DNA from: Polaribacter vadi
GTDB taxonomy: Bacteria; Bacteroidota; Bacteroidia; Flavobacteriales; Flavobacteriaceae
Length of the DNA: 64,000 nucleotides
Reading direction: 5' to 3'
Assembly (NCBI RefSeq): GCF_018861005.1
Contig: NZ_JAHKQL010000001.1
Coordinates: forward strand, 1-64,000
Shown: positions 32,621-39,681 of the stretch, piece after piece
Position numbering within the stretch: position 1 is the stretch's first letter
Layout: each line of letters opens with the position of its first letter
Program-made: the position numbers and the translations under genes
The notes under the pieces: generated by a model
What the model was told of the DNA's origin: nothing
Seen by the model: only the letters and a program-made list of their open reading frames with translations
The model's database searches: none

Positions 32621-35600
32621 CTATCTCATAATTTTCACATTCATTTCTTCTACTTTTTTATCAGAAAGAATTGATGGAGCATTAAATAATAAATCTTCTG
32701 ATGTTCCAGTTTTAGGGAAAGCCATTACTTCTCTAATAGAAGCTTTTTTCTCTAAAATCATCATTAAACGATCTACTCCCCAAGCAATTCCTCCATGAGG
32801 AGGTGCACCATATTGAAACGCTTTGTACATTGTTCCAACACTTTTTATCATTTCTTCTTTGTTGTAACCCATCTTTTTATAGGTTGCTTCTAGAATTTCT
32901 GCTTTATGTGCACGCACAGAACCTCCACCAATTTCGTAACCATTTAAGATTAAATCGTATTGTTGCGCTATGATTGTTCCAATTTCATCATCTTTACCAT
33001 TCATGTGTTTTTCTAAATCGTAAACAGCTGGCATTGAGAAAGGATTGTGTGTAAACGTCCATCTGCCTTCATCCGTTTTTTCAAACATCGGAAAATCTAC
33101 AACCCAAGCAGGTCTTAATTCCTTAGGATTTATCAATTTTAAGATTCTTCCCATTTCTTGACGAACAGCATCTAAAGCTTTGTTTGCGGTTGCATAATCA
33201 GCAGCAGAGAAAAATACAATATCACCAATTTGAGCATCTGTAGCTTTTATGATATTTGCAGCAATTTCTTCACCTAAAAACTTAATAATTGGCGATTGTA
33301 AATCATTTTCATTTACAATAATGTAAGCCAAACCACCTAAACCATTTTGTTGCGCAATTGCAGTCAAGTTTTCAATTTGACCTTTAGACATACGTTTGTT
33401 TCCTTGTTCTTCCGCAGAAACTTTTATACATTTTACAATTCCACCTTCATCTATAGGTTTACTAAATACTTGAAAAGTAGTGTCTTTAACTATGTCTGTA
33501 ATATCTTGCATTTCTAAACCATAACGTAAATCTGGTCTATCACAACCATATTTATCCATAGCTTCTTTGTAAGTAATCACTTCAAAAGGACGTAAAATCC
33601 ATTTTTTACCATAGATTTTCTTCACTATTTCATTAAACATTTTGGTGTTTAAATCGATAATCTGTTGCATACTTGCATATGCCATTTCAATATCTAACTG
33701 TGTAAATTCTGGCTGACGATCTCCTCTAGAATCTTCATCTCTAAAACAACGTGCAATTTGGAAGTATTTCTCAAATCCACCAACCATCAACATTTGCTTA
33801 AATTGTTGAGGTGCTTGTGGTAACGTATAAAAAGAACCTGCTTGTTTTCTTGTTGGGACAATAAATTCTCTTGCACCTTCGTCTGTACCTGCAGTTAAAA
33901 TCGGTGTTTCTATTTCTAAAAACTCTTCTTCATCTAAAATATCACGCAGTAATTTAATTACTTTATGTCTGTTTACAATTGCCTTGCGAACTTCATCATT
34001 TCTATGATCTAAAAACTTGTATTGAAAACGAACATTTTCATTGGTTTTCATGGCTCTTTTTATTTCAAAAGGCAAAGTTTTAGATAGGTTTAAAATTTCT
34101 AATGCAGAAGTTTCAAGTTCTATTTTACCAGTTCTTAAACCTGCATTATAATCATCTTCTCTTCTTTGAACTACAACACCAGTAACCATAATTACAGTTT
34201 CTGGTTTTAATTTTACCAATTCATCTAAATTCGGGAAAGTTTCTCTACTTAAACGAACCTGAAAAACTTGATAACTAGAATCACGTAAATCGATAAAAAT
34301 TAATTCTCCATGATCTCTAACACTAGAAACCCAACCAGATAATGTTACTTCTGCATTGATAGAATCATCAGATAATTCTGATATTTTATGGGTTCTATAT
34401 TCATCTTTTATGATGATAGGAGTTTCTTTTAATTCCTCTTCAACTTTAGATTTTGATTTGTCTTTGTTAGTTTCAGTTTTAGAAATTTTTACAGTTTCAG
34501 AACTCTGAACTTTTGACCCTGAACTTTTAACTTGAGATAAAATTTCTTCACGAATCACTTTTCCTGAAGCTCCTTTACCAATAATTTTGATGACTTTACC
34601 AACTAAAATTCCAGCTTTACCCTGATTTCCGTTTTTGATGTCGTTGGCAATTGCTTCGTTTTCAGATATTACTTTAGATACAGCATCCTTAATTTTATCT
34701 TCAGAAATGGTGTTGTCTTCAAAATATTTATTGTAATCGAAAGTTCTATCTTTTAAATATCTTGTAATTCCATTTTGAACTAAAACAGACGTAATTTTAT
34801 CTGCTTTAAATAATTGAAAAATTTCAATTAACTGATCTACATTATGAATATTGGCATATTCATCAGCAGCAATATTATTTACCAAAGTTTTAGCTACAAA
34901 AGACGGATCTTTTATCACGTTATTAATAGCAATAAAAGTTTCAGAACGCAATGAATCTGCAGTAAAAAACTTAGCATCTTGTGGTAAAACACCTCCTTTT
35001 ATCAAAATAGATTCAACTGCAAAAGGTAAAGAACTAACATCAACATCTATACTTTCTACAACATTTTTAATACTTACAAAAGGTAAATCTGGTTCAGAAA
35101 TAAAACGATAATCCGCTTCAAACTCCTTTTTACGCATTGTTTTAGTTTGCTTTAAATCTGCATCAAACAATACTGTAGTTTGGTCTGGTCTAAATTCTTT
35201 GTGCTCTATATAATAGTTTAATTGCTTTTCAACTTCTTCTTTTAAAGCTTCAATCATAAACTTAAATGAGTTCAAGTTTTTGATTTCTGTACGTGGATTT
35301 AAGTTATAGCTGTGTTTTTTTCTAAGTGATACAGAAACATCAGATTTAAATTCACCTTTCTCCAAATTTGCTTCGGATATTTTTAAATTTTGAACAATTC
35401 TCTGAATATATTGTGCATACGTAGATGCATCTTCAATGTGTCTGATACAAGGTTCAGTTACAATTTCAATTAAAGGTACACCAGCTTTGTTAAAATCGAC
35501 TAAAGAAACTTTCTTTTCATGCATCAATTTTGCAGCATCTTCCTCAATGTGAACTTGCGTTAAATTCACAGTAAATTGAGATCCATCATTTCTGAAACAA

Positions 35601-35956
35601 GAAACTTGTCCATCAGGAATTACAGGGTTATGAAACTGTGTAATCTGTATATTTTTAGGATTATCTGGATATTCGTAATGTTTACGATCCCAAGAAATTA
35701 CTTCGTTTTCAAAAGTTGATTTTACAGCTTTACCAAAATAAATTGCTTTGGTAATTGCTTCTTTATTTATAGATGGTAAAACACCCATTTGCCCAGTACA
35801 AACTGAACATATATTTGTGTTTGGCTGTGCAGATTCTGTATTTGCACAAGAGCAAAACAACTTGGTTTTTGTGTTTAAACGAACGTGAGTTTCTAAACCT
35901 ATTACTAGTTCTAAATCGTATTTTTTTAATAAATCATTTAATTTCTCTAGCTCCAT
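32621..35956 (-). CDS. gatB-aspS: GatB-aspartyl-tRNA synthetase fusion
   Basis: One 1111-residue frame encodes two enzymes. Residues 1 to about 475 are GatB of the Asp-tRNA(Asn)/Glu-tRNA(Gln) amidotransferase: VIGLETHVRLNTKTKLFC at 18-35, zinc-type cysteines C35, C37, C50 and C53, and the C-terminal helical tail. A Ser/Lys/Glu-rich linker (about 476-512) follows. Residues about 515-1111 are a bacterial-type AspRS: OB-fold anticodon domain (GWVSSVRDHGELIFIDLRD at 541-559), class II motif 2 (FRDED near 738-742, RQPEFTQLDIE 747-757), GAD domain (about 820-940) and motif 3 (GIAWGVDRLMMIL 1056-1068). H549 fits non-discriminating AspRS. It overlaps gatA by one base (TAATG). The chain should charge Asp onto tRNA and pass Asp-tRNA(Asn) for amidation. 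Confidence 0.95.
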   Translation of the reverse strand: MELEKLNDLLKKYDLELVIGLETHVRLNTKTKLFCSCANTESAQPNTNICSVCTGQMGVLPSINKEAITKAIYFGKAVKSTFENEVISWDRKHYEYPDNPKNIQITQFHNPVIPDGQVSCFRNDGSQFTVNLTQVHIEEDAAKLMHEKKVSLVDFNKAGVPLIEIVTEPCIRHIEDASTYAQYIQRIVQNLKISEANLEKGEFKSDVSVSLRKKHSYNLNPRTEIKNLNSFKFMIEALKEEVEKQLNYYIEHKEFRPDQTTVLFDADLKQTKTMRKKEFEADYRFISEPDLPFVSIKNVVESIDVDVSSLPFAVESILIKGGVLPQDAKFFTADSLRSETFIAINNVIKDPSFVAKTLVNNIAADEYANIHNVDQLIEIFQLFKADKITSVLVQNGITRYLKDRTFDYNKYFEDNTISEDKIKDAVSKVISENEAIANDIKNGNQGKAGILVGKVIKIIGKGASGKVIREEILSQVKSSGSKVQSSETVKISKTETNKDKSKSKVEEELKETPIIIKDEYRTHKISELSDDSINAEVTLSGWVSSVRDHGELIFIDLRDSSYQVFQVRLSRETFPNLDELVKLKPETVIMVTGVVVQRREDDYNAGLRTGKIELETSALEILNLSKTLPFEIKRAMKTNENVRFQYKFLDHRNDEVRKAIVNRHKVIKLLRDILDEEEFLEIETPILTAGTDEGAREFIVPTRKQAGSFYTLPQAPQQFKQMLMVGGFEKYFQIARCFRDEDSRGDRQPEFTQLDIEMAYASMQQIIDLNTKMFNEIVKKIYGKKWILRPFEVITYKEAMDKYGCDRPDLRYGLEMQDITDIVKDTTFQVFSKPIDEGGIVKCIKVSAEEQGNKRMSKGQIENLTAIAQQNGLGGLAYIIVNENDLQSPIIKFLGEEIAANIIKATDAQIGDIVFFSAADYATANKALDAVRQEMGRILKLINPKELRPAWVVDFPMFEKTDEGRWTFTHNPFSMPAVYDLEKHMNGKDDEIGTIIAQQYDLILNGYEIGGGSVRAHKAEILEATYKKMGYNKEEMIKSVGTMYKAFQYGAPPHGGIAWGVDRLMMILEKKASIREVMAFPKTGTSEDLLFNAPSILSDKKVEEMNVKIMR

Positions 35957-37356
35957 TATATTAAATCATTTAAGAAATTAGCGAATTGTAAAACCAAAGC
36001 ATCATTGTTTTTTGCTGCAGAAATTTGCAAACCTGTTGCAGTTCCTTTTGGTATTGTTAACGTTGGTAATTGACCTAAACTAAAACCTACTGTATAAGCA
36101 TCAGATAAATACATTGCTAGAGGATCGTTTAAGCTGTCTCCAATTTTAGGAGGTGTATTTGGTGTTACTGGCGACAAAATGATATCAACTTCTTTAAAGT
36201 CTTTTTCAAAATTATCAGAAATTTGATCTCTTAGGTTTAAGCCTTTTAAGTAAATCTCATCAGAAAAACCTTGAGACAAAACTTGATTACCACCAACAAT
36301 TCTTCTTTTAGATTCTTGAGAGAAGTTTTCTGAACGAGTAATAGAATAGGTGTCTTTTAAATTATCACCTTCAATTCTTGCTCCATAATTTGTACCATCT
36401 AATCTTGAAAGGTTAGAAGCAGTTTCAGCCATTGCTAAAGTATAGTATGTAGAAACTAAAGTATCAGATTCAAAGAAATCAAGTTCTTTAACTTCAATTC
36501 CTTTTGTTTTTATTTTTTCTATGGATGCTAAAAAATCTGCTTTTACTTGGGCATCAATAGCATCACTTTCTATAAAGTTTTTAAAATAACCAATGGTTTT
36601 TATTTCATCAGTATTTAAAATAGTTTCTTCGGATATTTTTTCTGATTGATAAGTAGTTTGATCTTTTATGTCTTTACCACTCATTACATTTAAAACGATT
36701 CTAATATCTTCAATTGATTTTGCAATTGGCCCAACACAATCTGTAGAAGATGCGTATGCCATAATTCCAAAACGAGAAATTCTACCATAAGTTGGTTTTA
36801 ATCCGAAGACATTATTGTAACCTGCTGGCTGACGAATAGAACCTCCAGTATCTCCACCAATAGAAAAAACGGTATAATCTTTGGCAACATTTACAGCAGA
36901 ACCTCCACTTGAACCTCCAGAAACTAAATCTGAATTAATGGCATTTTTTACAGCACCAAAAATGGTGTTTTCAGATGACGATCCATGTCCAAAACTATCG
37001 CAATTTTCTTTAACTAAAGGAATTGCACCTGCATCTAATAATTTCTGAATTGCAGTAGCTGTGTAAGCCGATTTATAATTTTTTAGTAAATCAGAACTTG
37101 CTGTGGTGTAAGTTCCTTGTACCATATAAACATCTTTAATTCCGAAAGGTATTCCTTCTAAAAGTCCAATTTCTTGTCCGCTTTCAATTTTAGCATCAAC
37201 TTTAGCAGCCAATTCCAAGGCCATTTTATCTAATAAAGAATTTACAGAATTGTATGCGTTAGATTTTAGTAAATCTAATTTGTCTTGTACTAACTTTGTA
37301 CAAGTAAATTCTTTGGCCATCAATTGTTGATGGATTTTGTGTATTTGCGATTTCAT
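35956..37356 (-). CDS. gatA: Asp-tRNA(Asn)/Glu-tRNA(Gln) amidotransferase subunit GatA
   Basis: A 466-residue amidase-signature protein that supplies ammonia from glutamine or asparagine. The Ser-cisSer-Lys triad is K74 (GIKDVY), S149 (SGGSSGGSA) and S173 (GGDTGGSIRQPAG). Their spacings (99 and 24 residues to the nucleophile) equal those of staphylococcal GatA (K79, S154, S178). It lies three bases after the gatC-like gene and its stop overlaps the gatB::aspS start by one base, so all three are translated together. Confidence 0.95.
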   Translation of the reverse strand: MKSQIHKIHQQLMAKEFTCTKLVQDKLDLLKSNAYNSVNSLLDKMALELAAKVDAKIESGQEIGLLEGIPFGIKDVYMVQGTYTTASSDLLKNYKSAYTATAIQKLLDAGAIPLVKENCDSFGHGSSSENTIFGAVKNAINSDLVSGGSSGGSAVNVAKDYTVFSIGGDTGGSIRQPAGYNNVFGLKPTYGRISRFGIMAYASSTDCVGPIAKSIEDIRIVLNVMSGKDIKDQTTYQSEKISEETILNTDEIKTIGYFKNFIESDAIDAQVKADFLASIEKIKTKGIEVKELDFFESDTLVSTYYTLAMAETASNLSRLDGTNYGARIEGDNLKDTYSITRSENFSQESKRRIVGGNQVLSQGFSDEIYLKGLNLRDQISDNFEKDFKEVDIILSPVTPNTPPKIGDSLNDPLAMYLSDAYTVGFSLGQLPTLTIPKGTATGLQISAAKNNDALVLQFANFLNDLI

Positions 37357-37358
37357 AT

Positions 37359-37628
37359 TTATTCTTCAATCACTTTAGAAACAACTAAATAGCCGTTTTT
37401 TTCTTTAGGGAAATTTTCAATAATTATTTTTTTCTCTTCTTTTGGGCTGTCTATTACAACATCCTCTCTCAAATCATCTAGAGAAACAGCATTATTATGA
37501 TTATTCTTAAAAGAATTGTTATTCGTTAAATTGGCATTTTTAATTACCTCAAATAATTTATTTACAGCTTCAGATGGCTGAGCTCCTTTAATACTAGACA
37601 ATATGTCTACTGTCATAATTTTACTCAT
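37359..37628 (-). CDS. gatC: GatC-like amidotransferase subunit
   Basis: An 89-residue protein immediately upstream of gatA. The C-terminal half fits GatC, which ends in a LRED...GYLVVPKVI pattern: here LREDVVIDSP at about 53-62 and NGYLVVSKVIEE at 78-89. The N-terminal half is divergent; it lacks an obvious GatC helix pair and has an asparagine-rich stretch (ten Asn in about 26 residues, near 23-48). GatC normally wraps the GatA-GatB interface. Position and tail support the call; the N-terminus leaves doubt. The start ATG lies 27 bases after a terminator hairpin, in the leader of the operon. Confidence 0.72.
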   Translation of the reverse strand: MSKIMTVDILSSIKGAQPSEAVNKLFEVIKNANLTNNNSFKNNHNNAVSLDDLREDVVIDSPKEEKKIIIENFPKEKNGYLVVSKVIEE

Positions 37629-37654
37629 CTTAATATTGCTTTTAATTAAAAAGT

Positions 37655-37680
37655 AAAGCCTTCCGAAATCGGAAGGCTTT
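37655..37680 (-). terminator. attenuator terminator in front of gatC
   Basis: On the minus strand AAAGCCTTCCGA (37680-37669) pairs with TCGGAAGGCTTT (37666-37655), a 12-bp stem with a two-base formal loop, followed by ACTTTTT. It lies between the Asn leader peptide and gatC with no upstream gene to terminate, so it must act on the operon's own leader transcript. Confidence 0.88.
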
Positions 37681-37712
37681 ATTTATATATTTCTAAACAA
37701 CAACCTTCCAAT
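37668..37712 (-). promoter_or_regulatory. candidate antiterminator of the gat-aspS leader
   Basis: ATTGGAAGGTT (37712-37702) can pair with AGCCTTCCGAT (37678-37668), eleven pairs with two G-U. The second arm is part of the terminator stem at 37655-37680, so the two structures exclude each other. The first arm begins within two bases of the leader stop codon (37716-37714), where a terminating ribosome would cover it. Confidence 0.7.
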
Positions 37713-37749
37713 CCTAAAAATTAGGATTATTAAAATTATTATTGTTGTT
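37696..37749 (-). promoter_or_regulatory. upstream (1:2) structure of the gat-aspS leader
   Basis: Asn codons in the leader (AACAACAA, 37749-37742) can pair with TTGTTGTT (37703-37696). Inside it AATCCTAA (37728-37721) pairs with TTAGGATT (37717-37710). Together they enclose GGAAGG, the antiterminator arm. A ribosome stalled on the Asn run would block the outer stem and free that arm. Confidence 0.6.
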
Positions 37750-37764
37750 ATTATTCATAATCAT
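37714..37764 (-). CDS. asparagine-rich leader peptide of the gat-aspS operon
   Basis: A 16-codon frame reading MIMNNNNNNNFNNPNF then TAG. Ten of sixteen codons are Asn (seven in a row at 37755-37735). It starts 13 bases after a TATATTTG -7 box and ends just before mutually exclusive hairpins and a terminator that precede gatC. A run of codons for the amino acid made by the operon is the hallmark of ribosome-mediated attenuation, as in trpL, hisL and pheL. Here scarcity of Asn-tRNA(Asn) would stall the ribosome and allow transcription of the amidotransferase and AspRS. A second in-frame ATG is at codon 3. Peptide and mechanism are inferred from sequence. Confidence 0.85.
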   Translation of the reverse strand: MIMNNNNNNNFNNPNF

Positions 37765-37777
37765 TATTAATTGGTGG

Positions 37778-37785
37778 CAAATATA
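37778..37785 (-). promoter_or_regulatory. -7 promoter box of the gat-aspS operon
   Basis: TATATTTG on the minus strand, full TAnnTTTG match. Transcription would begin near 37770, only a few bases before the leader peptide start, an arrangement matching the trp leader. No strong -33 box is visible. Confidence 0.6.
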
Positions 37786-37834
37786 TATAGAATTGTTGTG
37801 TCTGCCACGTTAATTAATTAGTTTTTAAAAGAAA

Positions 37835-37867
37835 ACACCAATAATTTATAAGATAAATCATTGGTGT
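37835..37867 (-). terminator. terminator-like hairpin of unknown purpose
   Basis: ACACCAAT-x-ATTT (37835-37847) pairs with AAAT-x-ATTGGTGT (37855-37867), one mismatch, seven-base loop. On the minus strand TTTCTTTT follows. No minus-strand gene ends here. A TAAATTTG box at 37921-37914 and a small palindrome CAAACA/TGTTTG (37893-37907) lie upstream, so it may end a short RNA. Confidence 0.4.
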
Positions 37868-38074
37868 AGACATTAATTCAGTAAATTCAAATCAAACACG
37901 TTGTTTGGAGTTACAAATTTAAGTTTTTTGTTTGGTATTGTAAATAGATTTCATTTAACCTGTTATAATATTTAATTAAAATGATTATTAACATATGTAA
38001 ATGTAAGTACGAAAACGATTTATTGAATTTTTCTTTTAAAAAGTCTAATTAAGAGAAAAAAAGATAAAATAAAA
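37868..38074. other. AT-rich spacer between gat and trp control regions
   Basis: Apart from the CAAACACGTTGTTTG palindrome at 37893-37907 and a TAAATTTG box (minus, 37921-37914), I see no gene, leader or terminator here. Confidence 0.45.
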
Positions 38075-38106
38075 TTTGTGCAAAAAGAAATAGCTCTTTA
38101 CATTTG
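38075..38106 (+). promoter_or_regulatory. trp operon promoter
   Basis: TTTG at 38075-38078, a 20-base spacer, then TACATTTG at 38099-38106. This is a full Bacteroidota promoter (TTTG-N17-23-TAnnTTTG). Transcription should start just before the leader ATG at 38116. Confidence 0.75.
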
Positions 38107-38115
38107 TAATTCAGT

Positions 38116-38163
38116 ATGAAGAAAATAATAAACAATACTTGGTGGTGGAACTCTCTTATCTAA
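38116..38163 (+). CDS. trpL: trp operon leader peptide
   Basis: A 15-codon peptide, MKKIINNTWWWNSLI, then TAA. Three consecutive Trp codons (TGG at 38140-38148) sit in the middle. It starts nine bases after the -7 box and is followed by mutually exclusive hairpins and a terminator before trpE. This is the arrangement of the enterobacterial trp attenuator, in which slow decoding of Trp codons favours read-through. The call rests on sequence layout alone. Confidence 0.88.
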   Translation: MKKIINNTWWWNSLI

Positions 38164-38171
38164 TAAGTGAG
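38151..38171 (+). promoter_or_regulatory. trp leader 1:2 hairpin
   Basis: CTCTCTTAT (38151-38159) pairs with ATAAGTGAG (38163-38171) with one T-T mismatch and a three-base loop. It overlaps the end of trpL and takes up the antiterminator arm. Confidence 0.65.
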
Positions 38172-38215
38172 AACTAATCCTATATGTATAAAATATAAAA
38201 AAAGGCTTATCTCAC
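38167..38215 (+). promoter_or_regulatory. trp leader antiterminator
   Basis: GTGAGA (38167-38172) pairs with TCTCAC (38210-38215); TAA (38175-38177) can extend it with TTA (38207-38209) across a two-base bulge. It uses the loop and inner left arm of the terminator, so the two exclude each other. A ribosome at the trpL stop (38161-38163) would cover the first arm. Confidence 0.65.
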
Positions 38216-38230
38216 GATAAGCCTTTTTTT
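38197..38230 (+). terminator. trp attenuator terminator
   Basis: AAAAAAAGGCTTAT (38197-38210), loop CTCACG, ATAAGCCTTTTTTT (38217-38230): a 14-bp perfect stem ending in seven T's, located between trpL and trpE. Confidence 0.92.
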
Positions 38231-38286
38231 ATGCTGAATTTATATCAGCATAAAAAATAAAAAGATCCTGAATCTATTTCAGCATA
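38230..38286 (+). promoter_or_regulatory. alternative hairpins in front of trpE
   Basis: TATGCTGA (38230-38237) can pair with TCAGCATA at 38245-38252 or with an identical copy at 38279-38286, four bases before the trpE ATG. The second pairing would place the start region in a stem. A translational switch is possible but unproven. Confidence 0.4.
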
Positions 38287-38289
38287 AAA

Positions 38290-39681
38290 ATGAAAAAAAT
38301 ACAGTTTAAAACCATTCACAAAACTAAAATTGCAGATACAATAACTCCTGTAGGTTTGTATTTACGTTTTAGAGATAAATATGCAAATACACTTTTGCTA
38401 GAAAGTTCAGATTATCATAGTAAAGACGAAAGTTTTACGTTTATAGCTATTGAGCCTGTGGTTTCTATAAAAGCAGAAAATCATTATTTAAGTTTTTCTC
38501 ATAATGGAGTTGAATTAGAAAATCAAGAAATTGGTAGAAACTTCAATACTATTTTCGAAAATTATAGTAAATCAATCGCTTTAGATTGCCCAGCAGAATT
38601 AAAATCATTTAACGGTTTGTATGGTTATACAACTTATGATTCTGTTCAGTATTTTGAAAATATTGAATTATCTGTTGCTGATGCTCCTTCTGCAATTCCT
38701 CTATTACAATATAGTTTTTACAGGTTTATTATTGCTATCAATCATTTTAATGATGAAATGACATTGATAGAAAATATTGAAGAAGGCACTGAATCAAGAA
38801 TAAAGGAAATTCAGACAATTATAGATGCACAAACTTTTAATACTCAAAAGTTTGATATTGTTGGTGATGAGACATCAAATGTAAAAGGAGAAGAATTTAT
38901 TGATTATGTAAAAAAAGCAAAATCTCATTGTAAAAGAGGAGATGTTTTTCAACTTGTTTTATCTCGCCAATTTCAACAAAAATTTAAAGGTGATGAATTT
39001 AATGTATACAGAGCATTGCGTTCTATAAATCCATCTCCATATTTATTTTATTTTGATTATGGTTCTTTTAAATTAATGGGATCTTCACCAGAAGCACAAA
39101 TTAAAATTTCTGCAGGTAAAGCAACTATCAATCCAATTGCAGGTACCTTTAGAAGAACTGGTGATATGGCAAAAGATATTCTATTGGGTAAAAAATTATC
39201 CGCAGATAAAAAAGAAACTGCAGAACACGTAATGTTGGTAGATTTAGCACGAAACGATTTAAGTAAACACGCAGATAAGGTAGAAGTTGAGGTTTTTAAA
39301 GAAGTACAGTATTTTAGTCATGTAATTCATTTAGTTTCTACAGTTTCTGGTCAATTAAAAGGAAATCCGATAGAAATTGTGGGTGATACTTTTCCTGCAG
39401 GAACTTTAAGTGGAGCACCAAAATACAAAGCAATGCAGTTAATTGATAAATACGAGAATCAATCCAGAGGTTTTTATGGTGGAGCAGTTGGTATTATTGG
39501 TCTTGATGGTTCTGTAAATTTAGCGATTGCAATTCGTAGTTTTGTAAGTAAAAACAAGACTTTATATTACCAAGCAGGAGCAGGAATCGTAATTCATTCT
39601 GATGAAGAAAAAGAATTACAAGAAGTAAATAATAAATTAGCAGCGTTAAAAAAAGCGTTGATTTTAGCGGAAAATATTTAA
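38290..39681 (+). CDS. trpE: anthranilate synthase component I
   Basis: A 463-residue chorismate-binding enzyme that, with TrpG, makes anthranilate from chorismate and glutamine. The C-terminal chorismate domain shows KRGDVFQLVLSRQF (about 217-230), the SPEA element, the NPIAGTFRRTGD loop and the FPAGTLSGAPK segment. The N-terminal half carries the regulatory Trp-binding domain (LLLESSDYHS region is the typical feedback motif), so end-product inhibition is likely. First structural gene of the operon, 60 bases after the attenuator terminator. Confidence 0.95.
   Translation: MKKIQFKTIHKTKIADTITPVGLYLRFRDKYANTLLLESSDYHSKDESFTFIAIEPVVSIKAENHYLSFSHNGVELENQEIGRNFNTIFENYSKSIALDCPAELKSFNGLYGYTTYDSVQYFENIELSVADAPSAIPLLQYSFYRFIIAINHFNDEMTLIENIEEGTESRIKEIQTIIDAQTFNTQKFDIVGDETSNVKGEEFIDYVKKAKSHCKRGDVFQLVLSRQFQQKFKGDEFNVYRALRSINPSPYLFYFDYGSFKLMGSSPEAQIKISAGKATINPIAGTFRRTGDMAKDILLGKKLSADKKETAEHVMLVDLARNDLSKHADKVEVEVFKEVQYFSHVIHLVSTVSGQLKGNPIEIVGDTFPAGTLSGAPKYKAMQLIDKYENQSRGFYGGAVGIIGLDGSVNLAIAIRSFVSKNKTLYYQAGAGIVIHSDEEKELQEVNNKLAALKKALILAENI

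What the first reader, a model, noticed from the sequence alone, without database searches (positions are those of the whole stretch)
37628..37785. Asparagine-codon attenuator controlling the gat-aspS transamidosome operon
Seen on the minus strand, in order: a TATATTTG promoter box (37785-37778); a leader MIMNNNNNNNFNNPNF with ten Asn codons (37764-37714); pairing of the Asn codons AACAACAA (37749-37742) with TTGTTGTT (37703-37696) around an inner AATCCTAA/TTAGGATT stem; an antiterminator (37712-37702 with 37678-37668); and a 12-bp terminator with T-run (37680-37655), then gatC. Established: this layout defines ribosome-mediated attenuation (trpL, hisL, pheM-pheST). Inference: when Asn-tRNA(Asn) is scarce, the ribosome stalls on the Asn run, the antiterminator forms and the operon is read; when it is plentiful, the ribosome reaches the stop and masks the antiterminator arm, so transcription ends. 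I know of no described Asn leader peptide for an amidotransferase/AspRS operon.
Basis: partly seen in the sequence, partly recalled or inferred. Interest (0 to 1): 0.95.

Follow-up and report, generated by a model that had tools for sequence, protein, structure and literature searches.

The report
Asparagine-sensing leader for asparagine operon
A short RNA leader packed with asparagine codons, conserved ahead of a gatC-gatA-gatB/aspS operon in many flavobacteria that lack the usual asparagine synthetase, is predicted to turn the operon on when asparagine-charged tRNA runs short, so these bacteria would likely control asparagine made on tRNA the way E. coli controls tryptophan.

Summary
Minus strand 37785-37648 carries a TAnnTTTG box, a 16-codon leader ORF with ten Asn codons, an antiterminator arm just after the stop, and a 12-bp terminator, then gatC.

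It is conserved: 84 of 123 fetched gatC loci (75 distinct sequences), and 37 of the 59 genomes with this gatC in an even family sample. In 59 relatives a model of it scores above 53.5 bits only at this operon. Compensatory changes support the leader hairpin and terminator; the antiterminator core hardly varies, so covariation cannot test it.

The operon encodes GatC, GatA and a GatB::AspRS fusion. The genome also has AsnRS, GlnRS and a separate AspRS, but no asparagine synthetase was found. Across 397 family genomes this gatC (59) and AsnB (300) never co-occur. So the operon is probably the route to asparagine, made on tRNA, and the leader its end-product control.

T-box control of gatCAB is known in Clostridium; no leader-peptide version was found in ten searches of an incomplete library. 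Nothing was tested at the bench.

The parts
37778..37785 (-). promoter -7 box TATATTTG (TAnnTTTG type)
   Evidence: sequence; TAnnTTTG found upstream of the leader start in 84 of 84 leader loci. That TAnnTTTG is the Bacteroidetes promoter box is recalled knowledge.
37714..37764 (-). leader ORF MIMNNNNNNNFNNPNF, ten Asn codons, stop TAG; an in-frame second ATG lies at 37758
   Evidence: pattern M-x-x-Asn run-F-N-N-P-x-x-stop, with a few substitutions, in 75 distinct leaders
37732..37749 (-). region 1: Asn run plus Phe codon, pairs with region 2
   Evidence: RNAalifold consensus: Asn run with RUUGUU, and UUUC of the Phe codon with GAAG
37710..37728 (-). inner hairpin AATCCTAA / TTAGGATT spanning the stop codon
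   Evidence: compensatory C-G to U-A in 3 of 75 leaders, with Pro to Ser codon change; its outermost two pairs form in fewer than half of the leaders
37702..37712 (-). region 2: antiterminator arm ATTGGAAGGTT, begins just after the stop codon
   Evidence: arm found 3-6 nt after the stop in 69 of 75 leaders; pairs with region 3 when region 1 is removed
37696..37703 (-). TTGTTGTT, complement of the Asn codons
   Evidence: TTRTTGTT exactly in 65 of 75 distinct leaders, a variant in the other 10
37654..37681 (-). intrinsic terminator, 12 bp, 4-nt loop (regions 3 and 4)
   Evidence: compensatory changes at two pairs of the consensus stem
37648..37653 (-). T-rich tail of the terminator
37359..37628 (-). 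gatC (89 aa, divergent)
   Evidence: no Pfam match; TIGR00135 E 2.5e-4, below its cut-off; first gene of the gat operon
35956..37356 (-). gatA (466 aa)
   Evidence: Amidase PF01425, E 1.7e-111; best NCBIfam gatA TIGR00132, 433 bits against a cut-off of 481
32621..35956 (-). gatB::aspS fusion (1111 aa): GatB 14-477, bacterial-type AspRS 519-1110
   Evidence: NCBI names relatives 'bifunctional amidotransferase subunit GatB/aspartate--tRNA ligase AspS'

Best explanation
This is a conserved leader that encodes an asparagine-rich peptide ahead of the gatC-gatA-gatB::aspS operon, and it is predicted to work as a ribosome-mediated transcription attenuator that lets the operon be read when Asn-tRNA(Asn) is scarce. 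Shown by sequence: the leader, the two alternative stems, the terminator, their conservation, and an operon that in the sampled family never shares a genome with AsnB. Inferred: when Asn-tRNA is short, the ribosome stalls in the Asn run, the arm just after the stop codon is free to pair with the terminator's 5' half, and RNA polymerase reads on into gatC. When Asn-tRNA is plentiful, the ribosome reaches the stop codon, covers that arm, and the terminator forms. Inferred: the fused AspRS charges Asp onto tRNA(Asn) and GatCAB amidates it, so the operon makes asparagine on the tRNA that the leader reads, closing an end-product loop.
For: Leader and terminator upstream of gatC in 84 of 123 loci, 75 distinct; in the even family sample 37 of 59 operon genomes (17 of 30 plus 20 of 29). 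Asn is 650 of 1040 codons after the start in the 75 leaders, 6-10 per leader. Covariation of leader hairpin plus terminator: 43 cells changed on both sides against 21.3 +/- 4.0 shuffled, 0 of 500 reach it; C-G to U-A in three leaders, where the Pro codon becomes Ser. Model R1 gives 12 strong hits (95.7-127.5 bits), each just upstream of this gatC, and nothing else above 53.5 bits in 59 genomes (these leaders are also in the model). Snapshots ending just past region 3: antiterminator in 75 of 75 with the RNA masked to the Phe codon, 0 of 75 masked to stop+10. Metabolism: this gatC in 59, AsnB in 300, both in 0 of 397 family genomes. Own genome: no AsnA or AsnB found, but AsnRS, GlnRS and a separate AspRS. 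All 59 GatB matches over cut-off in that sample lie in long frames: 58 of 1114 aa or more, one of 809. The nearest solved AspRS is the P. aeruginosa Asp/Asn enzyme, and 73 of 75 fusions share its His. The one tRNA(Asn) found has U1-A72, which bacterial GatCAB recognises (PMC4206432, passages).
Against: No expression data. 22 of 59 operon genomes lack the leader, so the operon can do without it. Two of the five covariation measures are weak: pairs with a double change 6 against 4.4 (44 of 500) and further pair types 20 against 18.9 (156 of 500). The antiterminator shows no covariation; its core is nearly invariant, as a strand shared with the terminator should be. At equilibrium, 69 of 75 leaders masked to the Phe codon still fold into the terminator, so the model needs co-transcriptional folding. 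Without a ribosome, 64-69 of 75 snapshots form the antiterminator. The 0 of 75 at stop+10 follows from the assumed footprint. The leader also has Phe, and some have Arg or Leu. 5 of 15 operon genomes of the genus carry another AsnB-family protein over cut-off.
Confidence: 0.84

Rival explanations
1. The leader peptide itself stalls the ribosome (an arrest peptide, from the conserved F-N-N-P end) and senses something other than Asn-tRNA.
For: F-N-N-P near the stop is nearly invariant; Phe and Pro are more conserved than a pure Asn counter needs.
Against: The conserved codons are accounted for by RNA pairing: UUUC with GAAG and UCCUA with UAGGA. Pro becomes Ser in three leaders with a compensating base downstream. 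The run is Asn-rich in all 75 (6-10 each), which an arrest peptide would not need.
Confidence: 0.07
2. A constitutive terminator with a fortuitous AT-rich ORF: a fixed brake on the operon without Asn sensing.
For: AAT/AAC repeats arise easily in AT-rich DNA (general knowledge); leaderless relatives exist.
Against: 75 distinct leaders keep the Asn run, stop position, alternative arm and terminator together, with compensatory changes; a mere brake would not need them.
Confidence: 0.05
3. The attenuator is real but the operon serves another purpose than making asparagine, for example topping up Asn-tRNA under stress or bypassing inhibitors of AspRS or AsnRS.
For: AsnRS and a second AspRS are present, so Asn-tRNA can be made without it given free Asn; some operon genomes have other AsnB-family proteins.
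Against: Strict exclusion with AsnB (0 of 59 against 300 of 338), seen inside at least five mixed genera, and the precedent of Bdellovibrio with GlnRS, AsnRS, GatCAB and no Asn synthetase (PMC4206432, passages).
Confidence: 0.1
4. A T-box or protein-binding riboswitch rather than a translated leader.
For: T-box control of tRNA-dependent amidation is known in Clostridium (Saad 2012, 2013, seen only as references in PMC4206432).
Against: No T-box match in the window at gathering, nor in 37600-38300 up to E 1; conserved frame and stop, and a start codon in all 84.
Confidence: 0.02

Closest known systems
Classical amino-acid leader attenuators (trpL, hisL, thrL, pheM-pheST; recalled), with Rfam Thr_leader RF00506 and Phe_leader RF01859 as nearest leader models
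   Same: leader peptide rich in the regulated amino acid, alternative stems, terminator; sub-threshold matches of the Asn leader to Thr_leader (27.0 bits) and Phe_leader (28.1 bits), gathering score 55 for both
   Different: Asn instead of the known residues; the target is a tRNA-dependent amidation operon; no Rfam family reaches its gathering score here
Bacteroid-trp leader, Rfam RF01692
   Same: Bacteroidetes leader-peptide attenuator; one lies divergently about 330 bases away in this window
   Different: Trp codons, different sequence; the Asn leader is not matched by this model
[quoted passage not shown] 2012, 2013; only their titles seen, in the reference list of PMC4206432)
   Same: RNA control of tRNA-dependent amidation for asparagine, by the 2012 title; that Asn-tRNA charging is sensed is recalled
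   Different: a T-box binds the tRNA directly; here a ribosome translating Asn codons would be the sensor. An earlier T-box survey reported none ahead of the amidotransferase genes of species lacking GlnRS or AsnRS (PMC2494555, passage)
tRNA-dependent Asn synthesis in Bdellovibrio, Deinococcus and Thermus (PMC4206432, start of abstract and passages)
   Same: GlnRS, AsnRS, GatCAB and a non-discriminating AspRS, with no Asn synthetase in Bdellovibrio
   Different: here a second bacterial-type AspRS, fused to GatB, under an Asn leader
P. aeruginosa Asp/Asn AspRS (PDB 4wj3, 4wj4); that these entries are the Asn transamidosome is recalled
   Same: nearest solved relative of the AspRS part; same His in RDHG
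   Different: the chain is not fused to GatB
AspRS-GatC fusion, NCBIfam NF009460
   Same: AspRS fused to a GatCAB subunit
   Different: different subunit; score 470 against a cut-off of 1379

Membership tests
ribosome-mediated transcription attenuator | leader ORF rich in codons of the regulated amino acid | tested here: met
   10 Asn of 16 in the window; 6-10 Asn in each of 75 distinct leaders; translation itself not tested
ribosome-mediated transcription attenuator | intrinsic terminator between leader and first structural gene | tested here: met
   by sequence:
ribosome-mediated transcription attenuator | mutually exclusive antiterminator made accessible by stalling in the run | tested here: inconclusive
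   met in folding snapshots (75 of 75; window RNA); not met at equilibrium with region 4 present in 69 of 75; no covariation
ribosome-mediated transcription attenuator | stop codon placed so that a terminating ribosome covers the antiterminator arm | tested here: met
   arm found 3-6 nt after the stop in 69 of 75, at 0 in five, one mis-read by the pattern; footprint assumed
ribosome-mediated transcription attenuator | read-through rises when the aminoacyl-tRNA is scarce | not testable with these tools
   needs a bench experiment
tRNA-dependent asparagine synthesis | GatC, GatA, GatB present | tested here: met
   GatB over its cut-off, GatA and GatC below theirs (GatC weak)
tRNA-dependent asparagine synthesis | no AsnA or AsnB | tested here: met
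   own genome; the PF00733 hit is MnmA-like (my reading of the sequence), the best TIGR01536 hit 54.8 bits against a cut-off of 267.1
tRNA-dependent asparagine synthesis | non-discriminating AspRS | tested here: inconclusive
   His at the P. aeruginosa position in 73 of 75 fusions, two not found by the pattern; that this residue marks loose tRNA choice is recalled; activity not tested
tRNA-dependent asparagine synthesis | tRNA(Asn) with U1-A72 | tested here: met
   the one tRNA(Asn) found by pattern has U1 opposite A72; other copies not excluded
T-box riboswitch | match to the T-box model | tested here: not met
   no match in the window or in 37600-38300 up to E 1
Rfam Bacteroid-trp RF01692 | match of the Asn leader to the model | tested here: not met
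   only the divergent trp leader at 38096-38211 matches

The most novel reading that the evidence does not exclude
Flavobacteriaceae swap the asparagine synthetase for a covalent transamidosome (GatB fused to a second AspRS) that makes asparagine only on tRNA, and control it with an asparagine leader peptide. The ribosome would then read, codon by codon, the product of the very operon it controls. It would be the first leader-peptide attenuator for an amide amino acid and for a tRNA-dependent biosynthetic route, a ribosome-based counterpart of the clostridial gatCAB T-box reached independently.
Probability: 0.62. Interest if true: 0.8.

Novelty: new member of a known kind. Interest (0 to 1): 0.74.

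Why it matters
It would add asparagine to the amino acids sensed by leader peptides and show a non-T-box way to feed Asn-tRNA charging back on tRNA-dependent amidation. The strict either/or with AsnB offers a reason why these flavobacteria keep a GatCAB although direct charging is available (AsnRS checked in 59 relatives; GlnRS only in this genome). It makes a direct test possible: does a cell that makes asparagine on tRNA set that flux by ribosome stalling at Asn codons? The alignment of 75 leaders is ready material for a new Rfam family.

Tried and rejected
T-box or other Rfam element: no match at gathering for the Asn leader. A second copy of the leader elsewhere: none above 53.5 bits in 59 genomes (run with strict filters and a capped list); eight of the loci with weaker hits (L142-L149) hold no Asn-rich short ORF. 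An Asn leader ahead of AsnB: none seen by eye in the one AsnB locus read. Whole-RNA equilibrium folds as proof of switching: they fail in 69 of 75; the snapshot test fits a co-transcriptional switch, and its 'ribosome at stop' result rests on an assumed footprint (at the longest transcript, 2 of 75 pair region 3 with another place). Covariation of the Asn run with TTRTTGTT: AACAACAA against arm type p 0.013 within the all-Asn group but p 1.0 over all; AACAATAA against arm type p 3e-7 over all but p 1.0 within the group, so confounded with lineage; three rows (L043, L057, L090) were sorted wrongly by a stray CGT. The PF00733 hit in the own genome as an Asn synthetase: it reads as MnmA.

One search printed six minus-strand loci on the wrong strand; corrected. 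Genomes with neither this gatC nor AsnB (38 of 397) were not resolved; one of them, G197, has the fusion without a gatC hit, and G182 has gatC without a GatB hit. Other AsnB-family proteins were not counted in the family sample (one search kept E 1e-100 or better). The Fisher p-values ignore kinship. Tree: 75 of 80 named loci, five dropped for want of a full fusion frame, quick method.

Papers: PMC4833913, PMC9723704, PMC2965389, PMC2494555, PMC6523644, PMC9437257 seen as found passages; PMC4206432 as start of abstract and passages; others only as listings. No Asn leader peptide for a gat operon appeared in ten searches of a library without most subscription papers. PMC9723704 says that leader-peptide attenuation was seen ahead of amino-acid operons in Flavobacterium psychrophilum; its table of 64 structured leaders was not seen. 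A comparative study of attenuators of amino-acid and aminoacyl-tRNA operons (about 2010, recalled) was not looked up and may mention one.

Full report
What is there. On the minus strand, between divergent genes that I read as trp genes and a gat operon, the sequence shows in order a TATATTTG box (37785-37778), a leader ORF MIMNNNNNNNFNNPNF (37764-37714), an arm complementary to the terminator's 5' half, a 12-bp terminator (37681-37654) with a T-rich tail, and gatC from 37628. Among ten short ORFs of the window dominated by one residue, only this one is followed by a terminator. The operon is gatC, gatA and a gatB::aspS fusion of 1111 aa. NCBI names relatives of the fusion accordingly; the listed best matches that carry an organism name are Polaribacter, so the window is very likely from that genus.

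Conservation. GatC was used as the handle. It is in 14 of 59 relatives, in 59 of 397 genomes drawn evenly from the family, in 41 of 237 genera, and in 175 stretches of named genomes, of which the best 80 were kept. Of the 123 loci so gathered (some species occur twice), 84 have the Asn leader with terminator: 83 with ATG and L084 with GTG, 75 distinct sequences. For an even denominator I fetched the remaining loci of the family sample: 17 of the first 30 and 20 of the other 29 have the leader, so 37 of 59. All 84 leaders have a TAnnTTTG box, mostly 24-27 bases upstream. The peptide mostly reads M-x-x, a run of Asn (with Arg or Leu at one place in many Polaribacter), F-N-N-P-x-x-stop.

Loci without the leader. 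They mostly carry a compact box, ACTTT[TC]GTAnTTT, just before gatC: 27 of 39 leaderless loci among the 123, 9 of 9 among the later fetched ones, and 0 of 84 leader loci. On a quick tree of 75 fusion proteins (52 with leader, 23 without; five of the 80 named loci had no full frame) the leader needs 11 changes, at least 7 on starred branches, against about 20 in shuffles. It was gained or lost repeatedly while staying clustered.

Uniqueness. A covariance model of the 75 leaders (R1) gives 12 hits at 95.7-127.5 bits in 59 genomes, each at the gat operon; the next score is 53.5 bits. These 12 leaders are among the sequences behind the model, so the point is the gap and the lack of other copies. 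Of the 15 operon genomes of the genus (14 by GatC, plus G004 by GatB), 12 have the leader, two are leaderless (L004, L009), and in G004 the contig ends inside gatA. Eight of the weaker hits were inspected and contain no Asn-rich short ORF.

RNA logic. The full leader folds as leader hairpin plus terminator (-34.5 kcal/mol, z -5.4). Without the leader ORF the window's RNA folds as the antiterminator (-20.9; -18.0, z -6.5 when cut before region 4). The consensus fold pairs part of the Asn run with RUUGUU, the Phe codon UUUC with GAAG of the antiterminator arm, UCCUA with UAGGA, and the terminator. Support: C-G to U-A in three leaders (L013, L030, L031), which costs the peptide its Pro, and two terminator pairs with compensatory changes (6 and 24 sequences). 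Over the structure read from the window, 43 double changes against 21.3 +/- 4.0 in shuffles (0 of 500), but the number of pairs with a double change (6 against 4.4, 44 of 500) and of pair types (20 against 18.9, 156 of 500) is weak. The antiterminator shows no covariation, as its core is shared with the terminator.

Snapshots. Transcripts ending just past region 3 give the antiterminator in 75 of 75 when the RNA is masked to the Phe codon, in 0 of 75 when masked to stop+10, and in 64-69 of 75 with nothing masked. At equilibrium with region 4 present, 69 of 75 masked to the Phe codon keep the terminator. So the design works if folding follows transcription, and the off-signal would be the ribosome at the stop codon. 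The arm was found 3-6 bases after the stop in 69 of 75.

Why asparagine. The genome has AsnRS (C12), a separate AspRS of 593 aa (C35) and GlnRS, so GatCAB is not needed for charging as such. It has no AsnA match and no AsnB: the PF00733 hit reads as MnmA, and the best TIGR01536 hit, 54.8 bits, lies in a 627-aa frame that I take for GlmS. In the genus set, an AsnB of the short kind (frame about 530-590 aa, matched in two pieces, which I label E. coli-type) is in 19 of 21 genomes without the operon (one, G020, with a stop inside; the two misses are 53% and 57% complete) and in 0 of 15 with it. AsnRS is over cut-off in 14 of those 15 and in two pieces in G004. In the family sample, with the 553-aa AsnB of G035 as query at E 1e-100, gatC 59, AsnB 300, both 0, neither 38 of 397. 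At least five genera hold both types, so the swap recurred.

Against this. 5 of the 15 operon genomes (G013, G015, G021, G024, G029) carry another AsnB-family protein over cut-off; I take these for amidotransferases of other pathways, untested. In the family sample GatB over cut-off is found only in long frames: 58 of 59 are 1114 aa or more, the other 809 aa; other families of the order have frames of stand-alone size.

AspRS specificity. The nearest solved relative of the fused AspRS is the P. aeruginosa Asp/Asn enzyme (4wj3). Its RDHG matches the fusion; E. coli and T. thermophilus have RDLG and the cell's other AspRS has RDKG. 73 of 75 fusions have the His; in two my pattern found nothing. 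That this His marks loose tRNA choice is recalled, not read here. The one tRNA(Asn) found starts with U1 opposite A72, the pair that bacterial GatCAB recognises (PMC4206432, passages).

Known and new. Bdellovibrio uses a non-discriminating AspRS and GatCAB to make Asn beside AsnRS and GlnRS; the survey in PMC4206432 lists Bacteroidetes among 18 genera with GlnRS, AsnRS, GatCAB and no Asn synthetase, and found a second AspRS among those 18 only in Deinococcus-Thermus (passages). T-box control of amidation in Clostridium is the nearest regulatory analogue (titles in that paper's reference list; the papers themselves are not held). No Asn leader peptide came up in ten searches of a library that lacks most subscription papers, and one flavobacterial table of leaders was out of reach. 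The mechanism class is old; the residue, the target and the closed loop are new as far as I could see.

Noticed in passing
window 38096-38211 (+): Rfam Bacteroid-trp leader (54.9 bits) with a short ORF MKKIINNTWWWNSLI and a terminator-like hairpin ahead of genes I read as trpE, trpG, trpD: two predicted attenuators back to back, one for Trp and one for Asn.
   Followed up: partly
window 37826-37905 (-): Inverted repeat ACACCAATGATTTA..TAAATTATTGGTGT with a T-rich tail, preceded by TGTTTGATTTGAATTTACTGAATTAAT; aligned in L003, L013, L015 and in part L008, also visible in L004, L009, L053, L058. Possibly a small RNA between the two operons.
   Followed up: partly
L004, L009, L015, L167, L170 and others, just upstream of gatC: Leaderless operons share a compact box ACTTT[TC]GTAnTTT (27 of 39, later 9 of 9) found in none of 84 leader loci: an alternative control region in place of the attenuator.
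   Followed up: partly
window 32621-35956 (-): GatB::AspRS fusion; in the family sample all 59 GatB matches over cut-off lie in long frames, 58 of 1114 aa or more.
   Followed up: yes
about 20-40 bases upstream of the TAnnTTTG box in many leader loci: A recurring AAAAAATAGTG..TAGTNTAT block, possibly a -33 region or a regulator site.
   Followed up: no
L035 (Polaribacter sp. Hel1_85), upstream of gatC: No Asn ORF but a different terminator-like AGCTCGATCGAGCTTTTTTTT: perhaps a decayed or replaced leader.
   Followed up: no
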